From positions 9,362,001-9,426,000 of the forward strand of contig OZ017766.1 in NCBI GenBank assembly GCA_963969345.1: a DNA stretch of 64,000 nt, written 5' to 3'. This stretch comes from Turbatrix aceti. Taxonomy: Eukaryota > Nematoda > Chromadorea > Rhabditida > Panagrolaimidae. The notes beneath the pieces were generated by a model. The model was not told the DNA's origin. It did not search any database and was given only the letters and a program-made list of their open reading frames with translations. A program made the translations under genes and the position numbers. How positions within the stretch are numbered: the first letter of the stretch is position 1; each line of letters opens with the position of its first letter. Below are positions 255 to 63,490 of the stretch, one piece after another.

Positions 255-3200
255 CACAGCGCGTCAATAGGTCTCGACGCGAAAATTTTTTAAGTTTTTA
301 TAAAGTGTTATGTATTCGCCGGCATTTTTCACATGTTCATGCATTCTCGTTCGTTTTGGCACTTTTCAGTGTAATCAGGCTAAGACTGAGCTAACTAATC
401 GTCCTTGGGCTGAGTTGATAAATTATCGGAGAAATATGCTAGAAGGCGCTAAAGTTGCCTATTTTGAAAACGCATTTCAGGTTTTTTCTCCATACCTGTT
501 GTGTACAGATGAATTCTGGGGCTGATACCGAGTTGCCCATACCTATAGCTTGGAGGCCCACCCAACTTTACCTAGGTCGGCGACTATTAGTTTTCGAGTT
601 ATTCACGATTTTATATTCAGTGCTTTCAGGTGCTCGCTTCGGTTTGGTCGAGGAAAGTCCAATATGCACGATTTCACTTTTCTGAGGTATATCGACCCCA
701 AGGATGTCAAAAAACAAAAAATAAAACGGCTATCGTAACGCAGAAGCTCAATAAAAAATCACCAAAATATACGCGGTTTGGGTAAAGGGTCAGACCGGTT
801 TGGCGCATGGCACACCCAATGGTTAAGCATAGGACGCTCTCGATGTCTGACTCTCTTCAGCGCTCTCTGGTCCCTCACTGATTTCTTTTCGTTCAGCGCG
901 CGTCGCTCTCATGAAGAGAGATTTTCCCGCTGCCCGAGCGCGCTGGTCGAATTAGTTGCAAAAAAAGGAATTTTGGGCCAAATTTGGAAATTTTTACTTT
1001 TTCAAATTAGATTTGTAATTAGAATAATATTTGAAGCATTTTGATGTGTTTTTCGGAATTGTGGGACAATTTTTGATCAAAATCGAGTAGGGTTCGGGAG
1101 AAAAAATCCACGGATCTTCGAAATGTCGATAGAAAGCTGAAAATTTCAGGGTAGACTAAAAACAAAATTTCCTTTCGAATGGCTTACTCAGTTTTTTGAT
1201 ATCGAATCGATAAATGTCCGAAAAAACGGTTTTTTTCGGAAATTTGAAAAATTCGGAACTTTTTAGAACATTGATCGAAACGTGAATATCACTATTCGAT
1301 AGAGCAGTATCTTTTTTATCTACTCTGAAATTTTCACTGACTTACCGTATCCCTGGGGCATACGGTAGCGATTCTCCCGAACCATACTTGTTCAAACGCC
1401 TGAGGCTATGAGGTAAAGCGCTGCAGAACAAAGTGAGATAAAACATCTTGTAAGAAATTTTTCGGCCGACAAAATCGTGTAACTCCTGAATTTGTATCTA
1501 TTTTTTTGGCTTCGCGATTTTAATTCGCGCAACATACACTCATTTTTGGTACCAATTTTCCGACAATCGAGATCGAAAAAGTGGGGTATGGGAGAAAAAT
1601 CGCCGTCAAGCGAGTTTTAGAGTGTTATGGCATGAATCTCGACCCAAGACGTAAAAAACCCTGTAGAATTCAAAAATATTATTATTTTGTTTTTAAAGGT
1701 TCGAAAAAGTTCCGAAAAATGCTTTTTTTTCGAAAATTCGAACTTTTAGGAATTTTTCGGTCGAAATTGAAAAAAATGAATATCATCACCGCATTTAGAA
1801 TTCATTTTTACTCCTATCCTGAAATTTTCAGCAATATTGCTTTCAAACTGAACGAATGGCGATTTTTCCCCCAGACCCCACTTTTTCGATTTCAATTTTC
1901 GGAAAATTGGTACCAAAAATGAGTGTATGTTGCGCGAATTAATCTGGTGAAGCCAAAAAAATAGATACAAATTCAGGAGTTACACGGTTTTGTCGGCCGA
2001 AAAATTTCTTACAAGATGTTTTATCTCACTTTGTTCTGCAGCGCTCTACCTCATAGCCTCAGGCGTTTGAACAAGTATGGTTCGGGAGAATCGCTACCGT
2101 ATGCCCCAGGGATACGGTAAGTCTGTGAAAATTTCAGAGTAGATAAAAAAGATATTGCTCTTTCGAATGGTGATATTCATTTTTTGATCAAAGTTCTAAA
2201 AAGTTCCGAATTTTTCAAATTTCCGAAAAAAACCGTTTTTTCGGACATTTATCGATTCGATATCAAAAAACTGAGTAAGCCATTCGAAAGGAAATTTTGT
2301 TTTTAGTCTACCCTGAAATTTTCAGCTTTCTATCGACATTTCGGAGATCCGTGGATTTTTTCTACCGTACCCTACTCGATTTTGATCAAAAATTGTCCCA
2401 CAATTCCAAAAAACACATCAAAATGCTTCAAATATTATTATAATTACAAATCTAATTCGAAAAAATAAAAATTTCCGAATTTGGCCCGAAATTCCTTTTT
2501 TTGCAACTAATTCGACCAGCGCGCTCGGGCAGCGGGAGAATCTCTCTTCATGAGAGCGACGCGCGCTGAACGAAGAAAAACCAGTGAGGGACCAGGGAAA
2601 GCAGGATAGCCCAGACAGCCGGCGCGTCCTATGCTTAACCATTGGGTGTGCCATGCGCCAAACCGGTCTGACCCTTTACCGCGGTTTGCACCTCTCGAAG
2701 AGAGGGGAACACTACGCGCGCACTAATGTTCCCCGTCCTCTCTTTGTTTTCAGCTAGTTTTGAAGGACCGTATCACAGCCTGTATTGAGCTTCTGTGTTA
2801 TGATAGCCGTTTTATTTTTTGTTCTTTGACATCCTTGAGGTCGATATACCTCAGAAAAGTGAAATCGTGCATATTTGACTTCCCTCGACCAAACCGAAGG
2901 GAGCATCTGAAAGCACTGAATATAAAATCGTGAATAACTCGAAAACTAATAATCGCCGACTGGGGTAAAGTTGGGTGGGCCTCCGAGCTATAGGTATGGG
3001 CAACTCGGTATCAGCCCCAGAATTCATCTGTACACTACAGGTATGGAGAAAAAACCTGAAATGCGTTTTCAAAATAGGCAACTTTAGCGCCTTCTAGCAT
3101 ATTTCTCCGATAATTTATCAACTCAGCCCAAGGACGATTAGTTAGCTCAGTCTTAGCCTGATTACACTGAAAAGTGCCAAAACGAACGAGAATGCATGAA

Positions 3201-3281
3201 CATGTGAAAAATGCCGACGAATACACAACACTTTATAAAAACTCAAAAAATTTTCGCGTCGAGACCTATTGAAGCGTAGTG
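255..3281. mobile_element. Palindromic (foldback) DNA element A, about 3.0 kb
   Basis: The two halves are long inverted repeats of one another (for example 295-525 mirrors 3005-3240, and 778-1044 mirrors 2418-2690), so the unit could fold into a hairpin with arms over 1 kb. Termini read CACAGCGCGTCAATAGG on the left and, read inward from the right end, CACTACGCTTCAATAGG; both are followed by TCTCGACGCGAAAA. The hexamer TTTTGC lies directly outside both ends and may be the target duplication, although the T-rich context makes this uncertain. No transposase-like reading frame was seen; open frames inside are mirrored shadows. Its inner 1.9 kb resembles the element at 55588-58454. The CAC...GTG ends and shared terminal motif suggest a non-autonomous terminal-inverted-repeat DNA transposon, possibly CACTA-like; superfamily unproven. 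Confidence 0.75.
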
Positions 3282-7166: not shown

Positions 7167-7208
7167 ATGAACAACTCCGCTTCTACCAAAAATCCTAATG
7201 CCCCTAAC

Positions 7209-7443
7209 TGTCGGGAATTCTTCCCGAGTGTGGGAACGCTTGGCGTTACGTCCCGAACGCGTCTCTCTTTTCATCGTCGTACCTACGTTTTTCCCTATTC
7301 ATTGTTGTTTTCCCAAGATGTAGCGTGCGGTTGTTTTCTCCGGAGTTCTCAATAAACGCTACTATCCATCTTGTGAGTCTTCCTAACAACAATATCGTGT
7401 TCTGTTCTCGCGTGGTCCAACTCCGTTGTGGAATTGGAAGGAC
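7209..7443 (+). repeat. Left LTR of the palindromic retroelement
   Basis: It begins TGTCGGG and ends GGAAGGACA, about 235 bp. Copies occur direct at 8093-8325 and inverted at 8326-8389 (partial) and 9040-9273. It has an internal short palindrome at its very start (CGGGAATTCTTCCCG). A TGG-containing stretch lies 13 bp downstream of the LTR end (from 7457), but I could not identify a primer tRNA. Confidence 0.65.
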
Positions 7444-9273
7444 AGAACTCCGATACATGGTGCATCGGCCGGGAAGCGGGTGTACTTTCGGGTGCATCTG
7501 CTGTTCTACGAACCCGGCCTCTTCTCTACTGGACGCATGGACGCAGGGTATTTCGGTCAATCAACATGGTATTTCGAGGCATCAGTGGTATTTTCAAGGC
7601 TCGTGAGTCAATGGCTGAACCAAATCGGTGGTCGTGGAGAAAAGGCAGCGAGTGATGCGTCATTCTGCTCCCAGTGATTAACGATAAGGTCACACTGGCG
7701 CGACAGGGGGGAGCCTACTCAGGGTAGTAAGTCCGGAGCCGGAAACACGTCCACATCTCGGTGGAGTGTGAAGGGAGGCAACCTGAGGACTCGACGAAGC
7801 AAGAAGTCGTCATACGAGAAGGCAGCGACTACAGTAAGCAGGACGCGGTTGCAGACACCTGCGGAGCACAAAGGGCGGACACCTGCGGAGCACAGAAGGC
7901 AAACTGTAGTCGGCGCGCGGACAATGGCCTACAGAAACCAGCGACCATTCCTACAGAAGACAGCGACTTGGTCTACAGAAGACGGTAACCCCTTGATTGA
8001 CTGATCTCTTTCTACCCCTTCCTTTCATTGTGACCTCCCGCGGCCCCAAGATTGGCTGTGCCAGTTGCCGGTGGCGGCTCGATGGCGCGCAGTGTCGGGA
8101 ATTCTTCCCGAGTTTGGGAACACTTGGCGTTACGTCCCGAACGCGTCTCTCTTTTCATCGTCGTACCTACGTTTTTTCCCTATTCATTGTTGTTTTCCCA
8201 AGATGTAGCGTGCGGTTGTTTTCTCCGGAGTTCTCAATAAACGCTACTATCCATCTTGTGAGTCTTCCTAACAACAATATCGTGTTCTGTTCTCGCGTGG
8301 TCCAACTCCGTTGTGGAATTGGAAGGAAAAGAGAGACGCGTTCGGGACGTAACGCCAAGCGTTCCCACACTCGGGAAGAATTCCCGACACTGCGCGCCAT
8401 CGAGCCGCCACCGGCAACTGGCACAGCCAATCTTGGGGCCGCGGGAGGTCACAATGAAAGGAAGGGGTGGAAAGAGATCAGTCAATCAAGGGGTTACCGT
8501 CTTCTGTAGACCAGGTCGCTGTCTTCTGTAGGAATGGTCGCTGGTTTCTGTAGGCCATTGTCCGCGCGCCGACTACAGTTTGCCTCTGTGCTCCGCAGGT
8601 GTCCGCCCTTTGTGCTCCGCAGGTGTCTGCAACCGCGTCCTGCTTACTGTAGTCGCTGCCTTCTCGTATGACGACTTCTTGCTTCGTCGAGTCCTCAGGT
8701 TGCCTCCCTTCACACTCCACCGAGATGTGGACGTGTTTCCGGCTCCGGACTTACTACCCTGAGTAGGCTCCCCCCTGTCGCGCCAGTGTGACCTTATCGT
8801 TAATCACTGGGAGCAGAATGACGCATCACTCGCTGCCTTTTCTCCACGACCACCGATTTGGTTCAGCCATTGACTCACGAGCCTTGAAAATACCACTGAT
8901 GCCTCGAAATACCATGTTGATTGACCGAAATACCCTGCGTCCATGCGTCCAGTAGAGAAGAGGCCGGGTTCGTAGAACAGCAGATGCACCCGAAAGTACA
9001 CCCGCTTCCCGGCCGATGCACCATGTATCGGAGTTCTGTCCTTCCAATTCCACAACGGAGTTGGACCACGCGAGAACAGAACACGATATTGTTGTTAGGA
9101 AGACTCACAAGATGGATAGTAGCGTTTATTGAGAACTCCGGAGAAAACAACCGCACGCTACATCTTGGGAAAACAACAATGAATAGGGAAAAAACGTAGG
9201 TACGACGATGAAAAGAGAGACGCGTTCGGGACGTAACGCCAAGCGTTCCCAAACTCGGGAAGAATTCCCGACA
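7209..9273. mobile_element. Palindromic LTR-type retroelement (inverted dimer of a TRIM-like unit)
   Basis: The 2065-bp unit begins TGTCGGGAATTC and ends GAATTCCCGACA, and is flanked on both sides by CTAAC, a 5-bp target duplication as made by LTR-retrotransposon integrases. An LTR-like block (7209-7443, TGT...ACA) is followed by about 650 bp of non-coding interior, then a second direct LTR-like block from 8093 to about 8325. There the sequence turns round: 8326-8389 is the first 64 bp of an LTR inverted, and 8390-9273 is the interior and outer LTR inverted. Arms (7209-8156 and 8326-9273) are almost identical; I saw only a few differences, such as a one-base indel near 7900/8585. The interior carries small tandem repeats (ACCTGCGGAGCACA, CTACAGAA) and no gag-pol. 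It therefore depends on another element for movement. Confidence 0.8.
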
Positions 9274-10750
9274 CTAACAGCACATCGCTTCAAAGCATTC
9301 TTTATATGTTTAATTTATATTACAATCGGCACTATCTTATTACTTTAAATATTTACACAGAAAACATTCATCATTATATCAAGGTTATCAATTTTTTTGT
9401 AATTCTTTTTGTTGTTGTTTTTATGCTTAAGTCTGTGATCTCCAAGAACAGTGTGTTCAGAACACCTTTTTTTATCATTATCTTATTTGGTTGCATTTTC
9501 AAAACAACGTTTGATGGTATTTATCTTATATTGCACACAATTTTTAAAAACAAATTCTTAATAATTGATACGATTACTACCATGTTAATAATTTCATTAA
9601 ATGTTATTTTATCATATAACAAATTTTCAAGTATGTATGTTTTTTACATGACAACATTCAACGAATGTAAATTTGTAGTTAACAATGCTATTACATAATA
9701 AATAATTTTAGACATCATTCAATGGCGAATGGTTCACAAAATTTTTAATAAATACACAACAATTGGTTGGATTGGTTTATCTTTAGCCTATACTTTTCTG
9801 ATACCATTACTGTTATATCTTACGCACTACCCTAAATATGAGGTTTCTGATTCTGTGGTTATTCGTTTTAATTACATTCTCAGCATTATTAACTTTGTTG
9901 CAACGGCGATATCTACATGTCTATGTCTGGTCACTGGACTGCACAGCCGATGTCATCGAAACGACGTTTTTGATTTCAGCGTTTCCATAGAACAACGAAA
10001 CGCAGAAAACAATCTTCTCATTCAAACAACTGTGTTTTCGGTAGCATCATTGCTGGTTGCAATACTAAATGTTTTGTATGACCCGCCAAGTGATCAACGT
10101 CAACTATGGAAAAGTGGAATTATAGTGAATTGTTATAACATATTGAGAGAACTTTTAATGCCAATACTGGTTTTACCATTTGTTATAATCGACAAATGGA
10201 GGCACAATTTATTTCAATCCCAACGGTTAGCATCATTTATTTCGAAGTTGGGAGCTTTTTTTGTTATTTCAATACTAAAACAAAGATTTGACAATTCAAA
10301 GCTTCATCGCGGTTTAAAACGTGTTCCAGCAAGCGTTTACCTGGGATTGTTTTATTTCGCGGGTTTACTACGGTGTTTTTGGTATGCTTATGGGGTTGTC
10401 GAAGAATTCGATGCTGATATAGAAGACATGCTGAAATTGATGTTCAAAAAACCAACGCATGTATAAAGTTTTTTTTTTGATTTTTGTAGCCATAGTAAAC
10501 ACATCAGTTTAATAAAATATCAACGTGTTGTTGTTAATAAAGTTTGAATGACTGATTTTATGCAAATATAAAACGTTTGAATTTCAAATAGTTGCAGCTT
10601 TAATTATCGATTTCCGTTTATATTATTTGAAAAAGTTTTTGTTCATTTTTGATGATCTGCATTCCGATTTCGATTCGATCTGATACCGATTGCATTTTCT
10701 ATAGAAACGTAGAAACTGAATACGATATCTATAAAAACTCCCAGTAAAAA

Positions 10751-52664: not shown

Positions 52665-55384
52665 TCATTTTAATCGTAAGTTCCACTGATTGGTCAGTTC
52701 AGTGAAGTATATCTCAGTGTGATCCATTTGAGGTGCAACAAGTGATGATCCTGATTTTTTGCACACCACCGCATTCCACAATCGAGGCCATGTTGCAAAC
52801 TGCATAATACAGTGGTGTGCATAAAGATAAGACCACCTCTAAATTTCAAATTTTCACCTGTTTACCGATAAGCTAGACAAATTCTGTTTTCAGCAATGAA
52901 TTCAGCGACCCAGAAAACCCCATTGCGGTTGAGATTCACGTGATTCATAGCCGCCGTGAATCAAAATTGCTAAAACTTGGATTTTGGGGGTGTGCATAAA
53001 GATAAGACCACTTGGCTTAAAATTAATTTAGCGGGGTAAAGGGATGATGTTGACAACTTTGACTGTTTTATACAACTACTAGCACTGTAATAAAAATAAA
53101 AAATGTACATACCCGCGATATTCAGCCGAGATTGTGAGACATTTTTGGCAAAATTCTGTTTCAATATCCTCAACATCGACAACGGCATCCTAGAGATCTG
53201 TATTCTTGTCCACTTGTCTTCTATGGACATAAAATGCTTTGCCACAAGTTGTTCACAAGTTTAAGATCATAATAGCACTAAACATTTACTTTGGTATGCC
53301 ATAAAATTTGATTTTTTGAACTTGAGGTAGCTCCAAGAACTCCTTTTTGAGGTAAATCGAGGTAGTGTTGTGTACGAAAAAATTTTTTTGCTACGTTTTA
53401 TTGCATATCCTGACCGATACAAACTTTGTCAACATTGTCAAAACGCTATGTTGTACAGAATGCTCGTGTCGATGATAATGTGATGCTTCCTGTTCTCACA
53501 AAAAACCATAGGTGTCATACCGCTAAAGTTGCATCTGCTAAAAATTTTATTTTCATATGTAAGTCATGCCAAATATCATGAACTATCTTGTTTTCTACCA
53601 TTTTTCATTAAGAAACAAAAAAAAATCAAATGCGCAATGTTTTCGATAAAAAAAAGGGGGTTTAGTAATCTTTCCGAAATAAGGGTAATTTATGTAAAAA
53701 CAAACCGATCCGTATCGGTGTTGTAACACATTGACTGAACTGCGCGTTGCTCTTACAACGTTGATATAATTTGTATCGGTCGGGATATGCAATAAAACGT
53801 AGCAAAAAAATTTTTTCCTACACAACACTACCTCGATTTACCTCAAAAAGGAGTTCTTGGAGCTACCTCAAGTTCAAAAAATCAAATTTTATGGCATACC
53901 AAAGTAAATGTTTAGTGCTATTATGATCTTAAACTTGTGAACAACTTGTGGCAAAGCATTTTATGTCCATAGAAGACAAGTGGACAAGAATACAGATCTC
54001 TAGGATGCCGTTGTCGATGTTGAGGATATTGAAACAGAATTTTGCCAAAAATGTCTCACAATCTCGGCTGAATATCGCGGGTATGTACATTTTTTATTTT
54101 TATTACAGTGCTAGTAGTTGTATAAAACAGTCAAAGTTGTCAACATCATCCCTTTACCCCGCTAAATTAATTTTAAGCCAAGTGGTCTTATCTTTATGCA
54201 CACCCCCAAAATCCAAGTTTTAGCAATTTTGATTCACGGCGGCTATGAATCACGTGAATCTCAACCGCAATAGGGTTTTCTGGGTCGCTGAATTCATTGC
54301 TGAAAACAGAATTTGTCTAGCTTATCGGTAAACAGGTGAAAATTTGAAATTTAGAGGTGGTCTTATCTTTATGCACACCACTGTAGGACATATAACGCAA
54401 TAAAAAGCAGTGCCACAGTTGACCGCCGTCATCAGAACACTACGGATGCATTTGTCCCTGTTCATATGGCTGAAGGCTATTATACATCCACTTAGAAAAG
54501 ACATTATTGCCAGCGTTGGAATCAGTATTGGCACCAATGACATACTGATTTCGATATTTTGTTTTACCTAAAGTTTTCATCCATATCATATTTTTACATT
54601 TTTACGAAAAATAGCACCTGGAATCGTTCAGCCAATGAAATATTGTAATAATGTTTTAAATAAGCTTTATTCTTACGGTAGACAATAATTAAACAAATAA
54701 GATCGATGCCGCTTGATATAAACACGATGGAAGCGCATATCACTGGGCTTATAAATCGCATATAGGTAGTCGGCACAAGGACAAATGCAACGCCAATATT
54801 GAAAGTCGTTATGTAATAAAATGAACCAACAGACTTGTCACGTTCGTATTTTAGAGGATCAATGGTTGATAAAACACATTCAAATGTAATTCCATTCAGA
54901 GTTAGCGACATCAAAAAATACATGCTTATTTTAAAATAATGTAGGAATCCTAAAGGACCCCCCACCGAGATATCTAAAATGATGTGTTTAATGTTTTTTT
55001 AAGAATTAGAGATGTATAATACCGTCAGAAACAGCAAACGCAGCATCGAAGAGAAGATACATGCGGGTGATAAATCTCAAAGATGCTGCAAACATGGCAA
55101 AAAATACGTAAGGTCTTATACGACGTGGAAATAATGTCGATGTCGTTGTCAATAGAGCATAAAACCACGGAACACCTACTATGATTGCTAAAAATGTAAA
55201 ACATATTTCTGTTATTGTGATGCAAAAATTGATATTTTGGATGTACATCGGCACTTGTGAAATGTTGCCTAAAATTGCAAAATCATTTATTTGCAATCAC
55301 AAAATATGACTTACATGAATCAAAATCAGTTGAAACGCGGTACAACTGATATTTTAGCTCATCGTGGTTTAAAAATAACTTCAT
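52665..55384 (-). pseudogene. Sre-like chemoreceptor 5, last exon split by a Tc1-like foldback element
   Basis: Exons (minus): 55384-55315, 55268-55023, 54973-54618 and a last exon in two parts, 54567-54386 and 52809-52665, separated by the element at 52810-54383 and one copy of its TA duplication. Counting the TA once, the last exon is 327 nt and stays in frame to TGA at 52665, and the local spacing equals that of receptor 3, so the gene was intact before insertion (332 residues). The break falls within the TM7 region encoded by the last exon. As it stands the transcript would lose the end of TM7 and the C-terminal NQW tail. Other motifs (FPRRIRPYVFF, FECVLSTIDPLKYER, LAERFQ/VKQNIE) are preserved, arguing for a recent insertion. 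Confidence 0.75.
52810..54383. mobile_element. Tc1/mariner-type foldback element, 1574 bp
   Basis: It begins CAGTGGTGTGCATAAAG, ends with the exact inverted complement, and is flanked by TA on both sides, the target duplication of the Tc1/mariner group. The terminal repeats are about 615 bp each (52810 to about 53425 and about 53768 to 54383), nearly identical, around a 340-bp spacer. Both arms carry the same 90-codon outward-facing frame (53245-52970 minus and 53948-54223 plus) with KWTRIQISRMPLSML; this weakly recalls the C-terminal end of Tc1-family transposases, but I would not call it one. A second copy of GGTGTGCATAAAGATAAGACC lies inside each arm at about 52990 and 54190, so each arm carries a doubled terminus. 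Non-autonomous. Confidence 0.8.
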
Positions 55385-55587: not shown

Positions 55588-58454
55588 ACACTATGCGCCC
55601 ATGGTTCTGACACGAAAACGTTTTCTGACGTATTTTTTAGAATTTTACATATCTAATGTGTCTAAATGTTAGAAACAAGTAGTGTTTTGGGGGTTATCGA
55701 TGATGGCGGATTTAAAGGACGCGTCCGTTTAGCTTCGCGAGTTTTCCTCCCATCCTTCCTCTACTTTTGTAGTTCGATGACGTGTTATAGCGTGGAATGA
55801 ACTTCTCATGCTGGAGCAACTCCTGTGCGCGCTATTTTTGTTGTTACAAGCTCTGAACTTTATTCTCACTCGCTTACATATGCGAATGCGCGCGAAAATG
55901 GATTTTCAAAAAAAATGAAATATTGTTCAGCGCGCGTTGGCCGAATTAGTTGCAAAAAAAGGATTTTGGGCCAAATTTGAAAATTTTTACCTTTTCAAAT
56001 TAGATTTGTAATTAGAATAATATTTGAAGCATTTTGATATGTTTTTCAGAATTGTGGGACAATTTTTGATCAAAATCGAGTAGGGTTCGGAAGAAAAAAT
56101 CCACGGATCTTCAAAATATAGATAGAAAGCTGAAAATTTCAGGGTAGACTAAAAACAAAATTTCCTTTCGAATGGCTTACTCAGTTTTTTGATATCTATT
56201 CGATAAATGTTCGAAAAAACGGTTTTTTTCGGAAATTAGAAAAATTCGGAACTTTTTAGAACTTTGATCAAAAAATAAATATCACCAGTCGAAAGCGCAG
56301 TATCTTTTTTATCTGCTGTGAAATCTTCACAGACTTACCATATCCCTGGGGCATATGGTAGCGATTCTCCCGAACCCTACTTGTTTTAGCGCCTGAGGCT
56401 ATAAAGTGAAGCACTACGGAACAAAGTGAAATAGAGCATCTTGTTAGAAATTTTTTGGCCTACAAAATGTTGTAACTCCTGAATTTTTATATATTTTTTT
56501 TTCTTCGCAATTTTCGTTCGCGCAACATACACTCATTTTTGGTACAAATTTTCCAAAAATTGAAATCGAAAAAGGGGGGTACGGGGGAAAAATTGCCAGT
56601 CGTTCAGTTTGAAAGCAATATTGCTGAAAATTTCAGTATAGTAGTAAAAATGAATTCTAAATTCGATGGGGATATTTATTTATTTCCATTTGGACCAAAA
56701 AGTTTCTAAATTTTCAAATTTTCAAAAAAGAAGCATTTTTCGGAACTTTTTCGAATTTTTAGGAACAAAATACAATTTTTTTTGAATTCTACAGGGCTTT
56801 TTACATCCCAGGTCGAGGTTCGTGCTATAACACCCCAAAACTCGCTGAACAACGATTTTTCCCCCGTACCCCCCTTTTTCGATTTCAATTTTTGGAAAAT
56901 TTGTACCAAAAATGAGTGTGTGTTACGCGAACAAAAATTGCGAAGCCAAAAAAATATATAAAAATTCAGGAGTTACAACATTTTGTAGGCCAGAAAATTT
57001 CTAACAAGATGCTCTATTTCACTTTGTTCCGTAGTGCTTCACTTTATAGCCTCAGGCGCTAAAACAAGTAGGGTTCGGGAGAATCGCTACCGTATGCCAA
57101 CGAGAATTGGTAAATGTCTGAAAATTTTACAGTAGATCAAAAAGATACTGCTCCTTCGATTGGTGATATTTATTTTTTGATCAAGTTTCTAAAAAGTTCC
57201 GAATTTTTCTAATTTCCGAAAAAAACCGTTTTTTCGAACATTTATCGAATAGATATCAAAAAACTGAGTAAGCCATTCGAAAGGAAATTTTGTTTTTAGT
57301 CTACCCTGAAATTTTCAGCTTTCTATCTATATTTTGAAGATCCGTGGATTTTTTCTTCCGAACCCTACTCGATTTTGATCAAAAATTGTCCCACAATTCT
57401 GAAAAACATATCAAAATGCTTCAAATATTATTCTAATTACAAATCTAATTTGAAAAGGTAAAAATTTTCAAATTTGGCCCAAAATCCTTTTTTTGCAACT
57501 AATTCGGCCAACGCGCGCTGAACAATATTTCATTTTTTTTGAAAATCCATTTTCGCGCGCATTCGCATATGTAAGCGAGTGAGAATAAAGTTCAGAGCTT
57601 GTAACAACAAAAATAGCGCGCACAGGAGTTGCTCCAGCATGAGAAGTTCATTCCACGCTATAACACGTCATCGAACTACAAAAGTAGAGGAAGGATGGGA
57701 GGAAAACTCGCGAAGCTAAACGGACGCGTCCTTTAACGGTGCTATCAAAAATTTTATATTCGTTCAATAAATAGCAAAACAAAATTGTATTTTTTGTCTT
57801 TATTAGCGAAAATCACAATAAATTAGCTTATCGTAATCAGCGGTATCGAAAACCCCGGTGTGGAAAAAATGAGCAAATTCGGTGCATGAAATAAAAAATA
57901 ATTTCAATTCCAAATTTTTTTTCATACAAAAAGTGCGCGCTGAAGCATTTCAGTCGAAGGAGAACACAGTGCGCGCATGCAAATGCGCGTAGTGTGTTGC
58001 CTTCGGAAGCTTCGTGCCAAGCCGGTTAACCATTCTTATATATGAACTTTGGCATAATGATGAAGTTCGTCTTAAACTTTGCAATGAACTTTGCCCGGTA
58101 AAAAAATATTAATTTTGAACCGTGAAAATTAATTATTACTATTAATTTTTAAATTCGAAATAACTTCTTATTTCATGAACAGAATTTTTTTGTTTTTTGC
58201 TTTCGGGGGTTTTCAAGGACGTAGAACACGATGCAATAATTTATTGTGATATCGGCTAATAATTTCGTGAGTTACAGTAATTTTTACCTCAAATTATCGA
58301 TTTATCGATCGAATTTTGATTTTTTGATGGCACCATTAAATCGGCCGTAACCGATTACCCCCAGAACCATCTTTATGTCCGAAATATATCTACTCTGTGC
58401 ATATGAAAATAGCAAAAAAAAAGTTTTCGTGTCAAAACCATGGGCGCATAGTGT
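55588..58454. mobile_element. Palindromic (foldback) DNA element D, about 2.9 kb
   Basis: Ends read ACACTATGCGCCCATGG on the left and CCATGGGCGCATAGTGT on the right, followed inward by (T)GACACGAAAAC and its complement. GTA lies directly outside each end, a possible 3-bp target duplication. Inside, about 55710-57737 forms a long inverted repeat (for example CGTCCGTTTAGCTTCGCGAG near 55727 and its complement near 57715) whose centre is offset from that of the termini, because the right side carries about 700 bp of extra AT-rich sequence. The palindromic core matches that of element A at about 930-2560. No transposase frame. CACTA-like ends suggest a non-autonomous member of that or a related superfamily. 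Confidence 0.7.
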
Positions 58455-62285: not shown

Positions 62286-63490
62286 TTTTATTCTCAATCA
62301 ACATAAAAACAATAACAAAAACAACAACAAAGTAATGGAAAAAAGACGGTGGAGGAATACCCTTACGCAGTAGCATAGCTCGGCTACTACGCCACCCCGA
62401 CATAGTTTGGCCATTGCGCCAGCCCAACGTAGTAACATAACTTGGCTACTGCGTCAAAGAGGAGAGGGAAGCAGCACGCCGCAATATAGCGTAACTTGGC
62501 TATTGTGTCGAGATGGGAGTTGAAAAAATTTACACGACGATTACAATTACAAAAAATGATACTTTATCCGTTAAAGAGCATTGTCCAAGAAAAATGATAA
62601 AAAAAATATCCAGTAACAAATCAAAAAAGGATGATTTTAGAGAAACAATTACGACGACGATGTTAGCTATTTTAGAATCGATTGTGATTAACTTGGGTCA
62701 ATTTCCACGAGCAGCGAAGAGGGTAGCCATCCGAGTAAGCCGAATCCTGAAAAATAACACGAAATAAACGCCATAAGAAGAAAACGGACAAAAAACTCAA
62801 AAAACGATCAGAAAAAACTCATGTAATCAAAAAAGTCAGAACAGTTATCTTTGATTGCCCCGCCACGAAAAGTCGAACAAACAGTCCACACTACAACGTT
62901 GTTCGTTTGTCCAATTTTTCGTAGCGTTACATAAGTTTTTTCTGATCGTTTTTTGAGTTTTTTTGTCTATTTTCTTCTTATGGCGTTTATTTTCGTGTTA
63001 TTTTTCAGGATTCGGCTTACTCGGATGGTTACGCTCTTCGCTGCTTATGGACATCGACCCAAGTTAATCACAATCGATTCTAGAATAGCTAACATCGTCG
63101 TCGTAAATGTTTCTCTAATCTCATCCTTTTTTAATTTGTTTCTGGATATTTTTTATCATTTTTCTTGGACAATGCTCTTCAACGGATAAAGTATCATTTT
63201 TTGTAATTGTAATCGTGGTAAATTTTTTCAACTCCCATCTCGACACAATAGCCAAGTTACGCTATTGCGGCGTGCTGCTTCCCTCTCCTCTTTGACGCAG
63301 TAGCCAAGTTATGTTACTGCGTTGGGCTGGCGCAATGGCCAAACTATGCTACTACTGCGTCGGGGTGGCGCAGTAGCCGAGCTATGCCACTGCGTAAGGG
63401 TATTCCTCTACCGTCTTTTTTCCATTACTTTGTTGTTGTTTTTTGTTATTGTTTTTTGTTATTGTTTTTATGTTGATTGACAATAAAAAG
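62286..63490. mobile_element. Foldback element with subrepeated arms, about 1.2 kb
   Basis: Left end TTTTATTCTCAATCAACATAAAAAC and its complement at the right end bound two long inverted arms (about 62286-62830 and 62940-63490) around a short centre that itself contains a small palindrome (CAACGTTG). Each arm carries several diverged copies of GTAGCATAGCTCGGCTACTGCG separated by GC-rich spacers. Such internally repetitive inverted arms are typical of foldback elements. Frames at 62513-62767 and 62953-63189 are mirrored shadows. No clear target duplication seen. Confidence 0.7.

What the first reader, a model, noticed from the sequence alone, without database searches (positions are those of the whole stretch)
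7209..9273. An LTR-type element integrated as a near-perfect inverted dimer with a single 5-bp target duplication
The ends TGT...ACA and flanking CTAAC show one integration event, yet the unit holds two copies of a small LTR element head to head, fused through a shared middle LTR (8093-8325 direct, 8326-8389 inverted fragment). Both outer termini are the same 5' LTR edge. This implies that an integrase accepted a palindromic cDNA dimer, or that a palindromic LTR element is itself the replicating unit. I know of no standard named class with this architecture.
Basis: seen in the sequence. Interest (0 to 1): 0.85.

Follow-up and report, generated by a model that had tools for sequence, protein, structure and literature searches.

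The report
Inverted dimer of a miniature retrotransposon
In what looks like a roundworm genome, two copies of a tiny non-coding retrotransposon were joined tail to tail and inserted as one palindromic unit; a similar case was printed for maize, but this one carries sequence clues that its two halves came from two different source copies.

Summary
Window 7209-9273 is a 2,065-bp inverted dimer of a ~1.13-kb miniature LTR element (TRIM) with CTAAC on both sides and otherwise different flanks. Both outer ends are the U3 edge. The centre joins LTR positions 1-235 to inverted LTR positions 64-1 with a 2-bp overlap. The same genome gave 43 LTR matches (a lower bound), which I grouped into 22 loci, mostly monomers and solo LTRs; 15 of 22 have a 5-bp duplication. 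The dimer's junction was found once, so a self-propagating palindromic family is not supported. L025 is a smaller inverted LTR pair, U3 outward, with its own duplication (CCACC) and a different centre. L020 is a direct tandem inside one duplication. All 7 differences between the halves lie at sites that also vary among 13 other aligned copies, and the dimer has no letter absent from these. The three joined insertions all mix family alleles; only 2 of 13 two-LTR monomers do. Best explanation: two cDNAs from different source copies were joined near their U5 ends, then inserted by integrase through two U3 ends. A maize inverted TRIM pair with one duplication is in print (PMC4717578), so the kind is known.

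The parts
7204..7208 (.). left copy of the 5-bp target site duplication CTAAC
7209..7455 (+). left outer LTR (247 bp, TGTCGGG...CCGATA; AATAAA at 7351-7356)
7456..8092 (+). left internal region, no long reading frame, no polypurine tract evident by eye before the inner LTR
7458..7475 (+). primer binding site TGGTGCATCGGCCGGGAA, complementary to the 3' end of tRNA-Gly(GCC) plus CCA
   Evidence: tRNA-Gly(gcc) genes in 4 of 4 loci scanned
8093..8327 (+). left inner LTR, positions 1-235 only (last 12-13 bp missing)
8326..8327 (.). dimer joint, 2-bp overlap GA shared by both arms
   Evidence: found in 1 of 75 fetched loci
8326..8389 (-). right inner LTR, positions 1-64 only, inverted
8390..9025 (-). 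right internal region, inverted copy with 3 differences from the left one
9006..9023 (-). second tRNA-Gly primer binding site
9026..9273 (-). right outer LTR (248 bp), U3 edge outward
9274..9278 (.). right copy of the target site duplication CTAAC

Best explanation
It is one insertion of an inverted cDNA dimer of a non-autonomous TRIM, probably mobilised by a BEL/Pao-like retrotransposon of this (likely nematode) genome. Shown: architecture, single CTAAC duplication, U3 edges at both ends cut as in monomers, and two halves carrying different alleles of the family. Inferred: (1) RNAs of two different source copies were reverse transcribed together; (2) strand exchange between the two products, most simply plus-strand strong-stop DNA moving from one minus strand to the other, gave each half a 5' LTR of a different type from its 3' LTR; (3) the U5-side ends, incomplete or defective, were joined by host end joining or by a polymerase template switch with 2 bp of homology; (4) integrase paired the two intact U3 ends and inserted the product with a 5-bp staggered cut.
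For: Single duplication and unlike flanks. The family makes 5-bp duplications at 15 of 22 LTR-bearing loci. 7 of 7 half-to-half differences fall on columns that segregate among 13 other aligned copies (37 of 953 columns segregate), and the dimer has no letter absent from those 13. Outer and inner LTRs of each half differ in U3: left G22/G30 outer against T22/A30 inner, right T22/G30 outer against G22/G30 inner. Inverted LTR pair L025, U3 outward, duplication CCACC, joined in the primer site. Direct tandem L020 with one duplication. Allele-type LTR differences within the locus occur in 3 of 3 joined insertions (window, L025, L020) against 2 of 13 two-LTR monomers (L009, L018); comparison made after the fact.
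Against: No reads and no empty allele of another strain; the joined-flank search found no paralogous empty site. Mosaic LTRs also occur in monomers (L009, L018) and can arise by gene conversion among copies, or by a later inversion between the two arms that swaps outer against inner types. The 235/64 asymmetry could be a later central deletion of a longer palindrome. Of the seven differences, one is a T run (slippage possible) and one (688) varies in a single monomer. L025 lacks one terminal T and has a 6-bp repeat at its left LTR end. 7 of 22 loci show no clean duplication or could not be tested. The helper integrase was not identified.
Confidence: 0.7

Rival explanations
1. Snap-back of a single plus strand: the 3' end in U5 folded onto its own LTR and copied itself back, giving a one-molecule palindrome that was then integrated.
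For: Geometry fits (loop = LTR 65-235); 2-bp overlap at the joint.
Against: The halves differ at 7 sites, all segregating in the family, none private; self-copying predicts identical arms or private errors.
Confidence: 0.12
2. Chromosomal event after integration: fold-back duplication or sister fusion at a monomer, or two neighbouring opposite insertions followed by a deletion.
For: The same genome has a case that looks so: a TRIM LTR, inverted internal region and inverted LTR at the centre of a palindrome whose flanks are inverted too (L023/L029).
Against: Here the flanks are unlike each other and bear one direct 5-bp duplication at exact U3 edges on both sides; two insertions would need the identical target site.
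Confidence: 0.08
3. A self-propagating palindromic LTR family whose replicating unit is the dimer.
For: A second U3-outward inverted pair exists (L025), and a single-copy element of another tRNA-Gly family (L060) has inverted U3 edges at both ends.
Against: The joint was found once; L025 has a different centre; L060 has no matching duplication (CTGTC against CTCCC).
Confidence: 0.03
4. Assembly artefact from a palindromic read or mis-joined copies.
For: No reads could be inspected.
Against: Unlike flanks with a duplication, and arms that carry two different allele combinations.
Confidence: 0.05

Closest known systems
Inverted tandemly arrayed TRIM (Zma-SMART, maize; PMC4717578, section 8 with Fig. 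2 legend read, figure not seen)
   Same: two TRIM copies in inverted orientation flanked by one 5-bp target site duplication
   Different: plant family; the legend does not tell which LTR edges lie outside, and section 8 gives no account of how the inverted array formed; here two-source allele evidence and a tRNA-Gly-primed family of a likely nematode
Direct tandem TRIM arrays of plants, bivalves and cestodes (PMC4717578, PMC6934838, PMC4558846; passages read)
   Same: multi-LTR TRIM loci; L020 in this genome is of this direct kind
   Different: direct, not inverted; for the bivalve and cestode arrays the passages read invoke recombination or unequal crossing over
BEL/Pao LTR retrotransposons
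   Same: an element in this genome (L069) has rve, H2C2, DUF5641 and RVT_1 domains in the two pieces scanned, and LTR edge ...CGACA followed by TGGTGCATC; that DUF5641 marks BEL/Pao is recalled
   Different: its LTR did not appear among this TRIM's LTR matches; it shares only edges and the first 9 bases of the primer site, so partnership is inferred

Membership tests
TRIM | short direct LTRs around a short internal region | tested here: met
   12 monomers of about 1.13 kb with ~247-bp LTRs, three of them with damaged edges
TRIM | no coding capacity | tested here: met
   no stop-to-stop frame of 180 aa or more overlaps 7209-9273; the longest there is 170 aa and crosses the joint
TRIM | primer binding site next to the 5' LTR | tested here: met
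   TGGTGCATCGGCCGGGAA two bases after the LTR; tRNA-Gly(gcc) genes with the matching 3' part
TRIM | polypurine tract before the 3' LTR | tested here: not met
   GGTGGCGGCTCGATGGCGCGCAG precedes the inner LTR, judged by eye; other priming sites not tested. So the TRIM filing rests on the other features, and 'works like a TRIM' is the safer claim
TRIM | short target site duplication | tested here: met
   5 bp at 15 of 22 loci
Inverted tandemly arrayed TRIM | two inverted copies within one duplication | tested here: met
   window 7204-9278
Self-propagating palindromic element | many copies with the same centre joint | tested here: not met
   one copy
BEL/Pao | own pol genes of BEL/Pao type | tested here: not met
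   the TRIM is non-coding; BEL/Pao is only the candidate kind of helper

The most novel reading that the evidence does not exclude
Inverted U3-U3 dimers are a regular salvage route: cDNAs (or strong-stop DNAs) of this TRIM with unusable U5 ends are joined to each other in or near the particle, and integrase then works in vivo on two identical U3 ends. Two independent cases in one small family and a possible third in another tRNA-Gly family hint at this; the mixed alleles in all three joined insertions would show that different cDNAs met, and exchanged strong-stop DNA, before joining.
Probability: 0.3. Interest if true: 0.6.

Novelty: new member of a known kind. Interest (0 to 1): 0.42.

Why it matters
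Inverted dimers with one duplication record a cDNA joining step that happens before integration. Here the alleles in each half let one read that the pieces have different sources. If the reading is right, an integrase of this group can use two U3 ends. Such insertions leave long inverted repeats in the genome, which are generally unstable (established knowledge).

Tried and rejected
Empty-site paralogue of the joined flanks: none; only the two flanks themselves and two partial matches, 87% and 73%. A helper element with the same LTR: none seen among the 22 loci; the 1,571-bp piece that interrupts L022 was not examined. Naming the host: one protein search gave nothing at E 0.001; of 5 window ORFs scanned, one matched an Str chemoreceptor, one a kinase, three nothing, so 'nematode' rests on that one receptor family and is a likely phylum only. 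Other families: of 14 exact tRNA-Gly primer-site loci outside this family, all 14 were self-compared and 6 read; 4 have direct repeats fitting LTR pairs, L060 has inverted U3 edges without a matching duplication, L053 has an inverted repeat outside its LTR, and the other 8 showed no inverted repeat in the stretch fetched. Integrase (rve) list of 70 matches, read by eye: one opposite-strand pair within 20 kb (C1, 13.3 kb apart, different scores, not compared further) and one same-score opposite pair 36 kb apart on C5, not followed. Nested insertion of one element in the other's LTR: rejected, since CTAAC follows the right U3 edge directly.

Literature: ten searches; others gave no paper. The maize paper was listed; the inverted case was seen.

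The P value printed assumed all differences at non-singleton sites; one of the seven (688) is a singleton among the monomers, so that number is not used. In one search one of L020's four LTRs was dropped by a naming slip, so one search compares three of its four.

Full report
Observation. The sequence at 7209-9273 is an inverted dimer. The arms 7209-8156 and 8326-9273 match at 99.3%. Left to right: CTAAC, LTR (7209-7455), internal region with a tRNA-Gly primer site (7458-7475), LTR positions 1-235 (8093-8327), joined through a shared GA to inverted LTR positions 64-1 (8326-8389), inverted internal region, inverted LTR (9026-9273), CTAAC. Both outer ends are U3 edges. The flanks beyond CTAAC differ.

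The family. The genome held for this window (59.9 Mb, 28 contigs) gave 43 LTR matches (40 of 45 candidates scored, so a lower bound). I grouped all 43, from coordinates and fetched sequences, into 22 loci: this dimer, 12 monomers (L009-L019, L021), 2 interrupted or rearranged monomers (L022, L024), 1 direct tandem (L020), 1 inverted LTR pair (L025), 1 copy at the centre of a chromosomal palindrome (L023) and 4 solo LTRs (L027, L028, L035, L036). Shorter fragments (L026, L037-L042 and others) were left out. A 5-bp duplication at the edges was found at 15 of 22: this dimer, 8 monomers, L020, L025 and the 4 solo LTRs. L017 had a 5-mer match two bases off a damaged edge; L012, L018, L021 and L024 had none; L023 had none at its edges; L022 could not be tested, one flank being N. 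Pairing flanks of different loci gave any match in the same box in 15 of 462 pairs, and within a summed shift of 2 in 2 of 462. Monomers with clean edges run TGTCGGG...CCGATA. The element is non-coding and fits a TRIM, except that no polypurine tract is evident before the 3' LTR. The primer site fits tRNA-Gly(gcc), found in 4 of 4 loci scanned of the 14 matches to its 3' part; at least two of those 14 matches are primer sites themselves (L060, L061), not tRNA genes.

Other joined insertions. L025 (C1:2914068-2914586) is an LTR with a 6-bp repeat at its end, three bases of the primer site, then eleven bases of the inverted primer site and an inverted LTR, flanked by CCACC; its left edge lacks the first T. 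L020 is LTR-internal-LTR joined, through CAT, to LTR-shortened internal-LTR, inside one duplication, AGCAC on the plus strand. Thus 3 of 22 loci carry joined products inside one duplication, two of them inverted with U3 outward. Among the 22 I saw none with U5 edges outward inside a duplication. The sample is small.

Two sources. Seven positions differ between the halves (22, 79, 688, 760, 805, 906, 914 of the left unit). At all seven both letters occur among 13 other aligned copies (12 monomers and one unit of L020; the other loci were not in this alignment); 37 of 953 columns segregate there, some at damaged edges; the dimer has no letter absent from those 13. Position 79 is a T run and 688 varies in L019 only, so those two weigh less. 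A self-copied palindrome would be expected to show identical arms or private errors. The outer and inner LTR also differ within each half, at 3 sites on the left and 1 on the right, which ordinary reverse transcription, copying both LTRs from one U3, does not give (established knowledge). Of 13 two-LTR monomers (L022 included), 10 have identical LTR pairs in the columns compared, L015 differs by two letters not both seen elsewhere, and L009 and L018 differ by family alleles. L009 has a clean duplication; L018 has none. In the three joined insertions, by contrast, LTRs differ by family alleles in all three: window, L025 (one site) and L020 (two sites, three of four LTRs compared). This contrast was noticed after the fact. 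The LTRs of L023 are identical, as its palindrome would predict. Transfer of plus-strand strong-stop DNA between two minus strands explains the window and L009; gene conversion between copies, or an inversion between the two arms after insertion, could not be excluded.

Mechanism. Best-supported: two cDNAs from different source copies, joined on the U5 side and inserted by integrase through two U3 ends. Whether the joint was made by end joining, by a polymerase switching strands, or trimmed later by a central deletion is open; a 2-bp overlap fits all three. Helper: 32 exact primer-site matches, 14 of them outside the family, show that other tRNA-Gly elements exist here. One autonomous-looking element, L069, has integrase and reverse transcriptase domains of BEL/Pao kind and similar edges, but its LTR is not among this TRIM's matches, so the helper is a guess.

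Known or new. Gao et al. 2016 (PMC4717578; section 8 in full plus passages) list a maize TRIM array 'with two inverted TRIMs' and duplication CTTCA, among structures checked by PCR and sequencing. So an inverted TRIM pair in one duplication is in print. Passages of PMC6934838 and PMC4558846 describe direct tandem TRIMs, put down there to recombination or unequal crossing over; in PMC4558846 the word 'inverted' does not occur. Passages of PMC3281118 gave nothing on inverted copies. The abstract and outline of PMC1905944 concern integrase cutting two-LTR junctions and do not bear on U3-U3 insertion. In the ten searches listed under Tried and rejected I found no account of two-source evidence in such a dimer, but the library lacks most subscription papers and I read few of the papers listed.

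Noticed in passing
L029, L067, L068 (C1:11055500-11085499): A chromosomal palindrome with matching stretches of 3,037, 5,045 (both 100%) and about 1,108 bp (99.9%), arms spanning about 14.7 and 10.6 kb of the 30 kb read and differing by inserted pieces, has a TRIM LTR, inverted internal region and inverted LTR at its centre; its outer limits were not reached.
   Followed up: partly
L030 4598-5361 (C1:1032197-1032960): A palindrome (340-nt arms, 98%) with fragments of the same LTR at its centre, flanks included in the arms.
   Followed up: partly
L060 (C5:2672388-2673691): Single-copy element with another LTR and tRNA-Gly primer site: full LTR at one end and inverted U3 positions 1-89 at the other, U3 outward on both sides, no clear duplication; the internal part looks like a BEL/Pao integrase end (by eye).
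   Followed up: partly
window 7209-7232; L053, L059, L060, L064: Five U3 edges that I picked all begin TGTCG and can fold into a hairpin (no shuffle control; L062 and L063 not folded); its role is unknown.
   Followed up: partly
window 260-3276, 781-2680, 52808-54385, 55712-57736, 62295-63464: Several long inverted-repeat elements; 781-2680 is flanked by GCGGTTTG on both sides and 52808-54385 has TACAGTGG...CCACTGTA ends, both looking like DNA transposons.
   Followed up: partly
window 8070-8092: No polypurine tract is evident before the 3' LTR of this TRIM, so plus-strand priming is unexplained.
   Followed up: no
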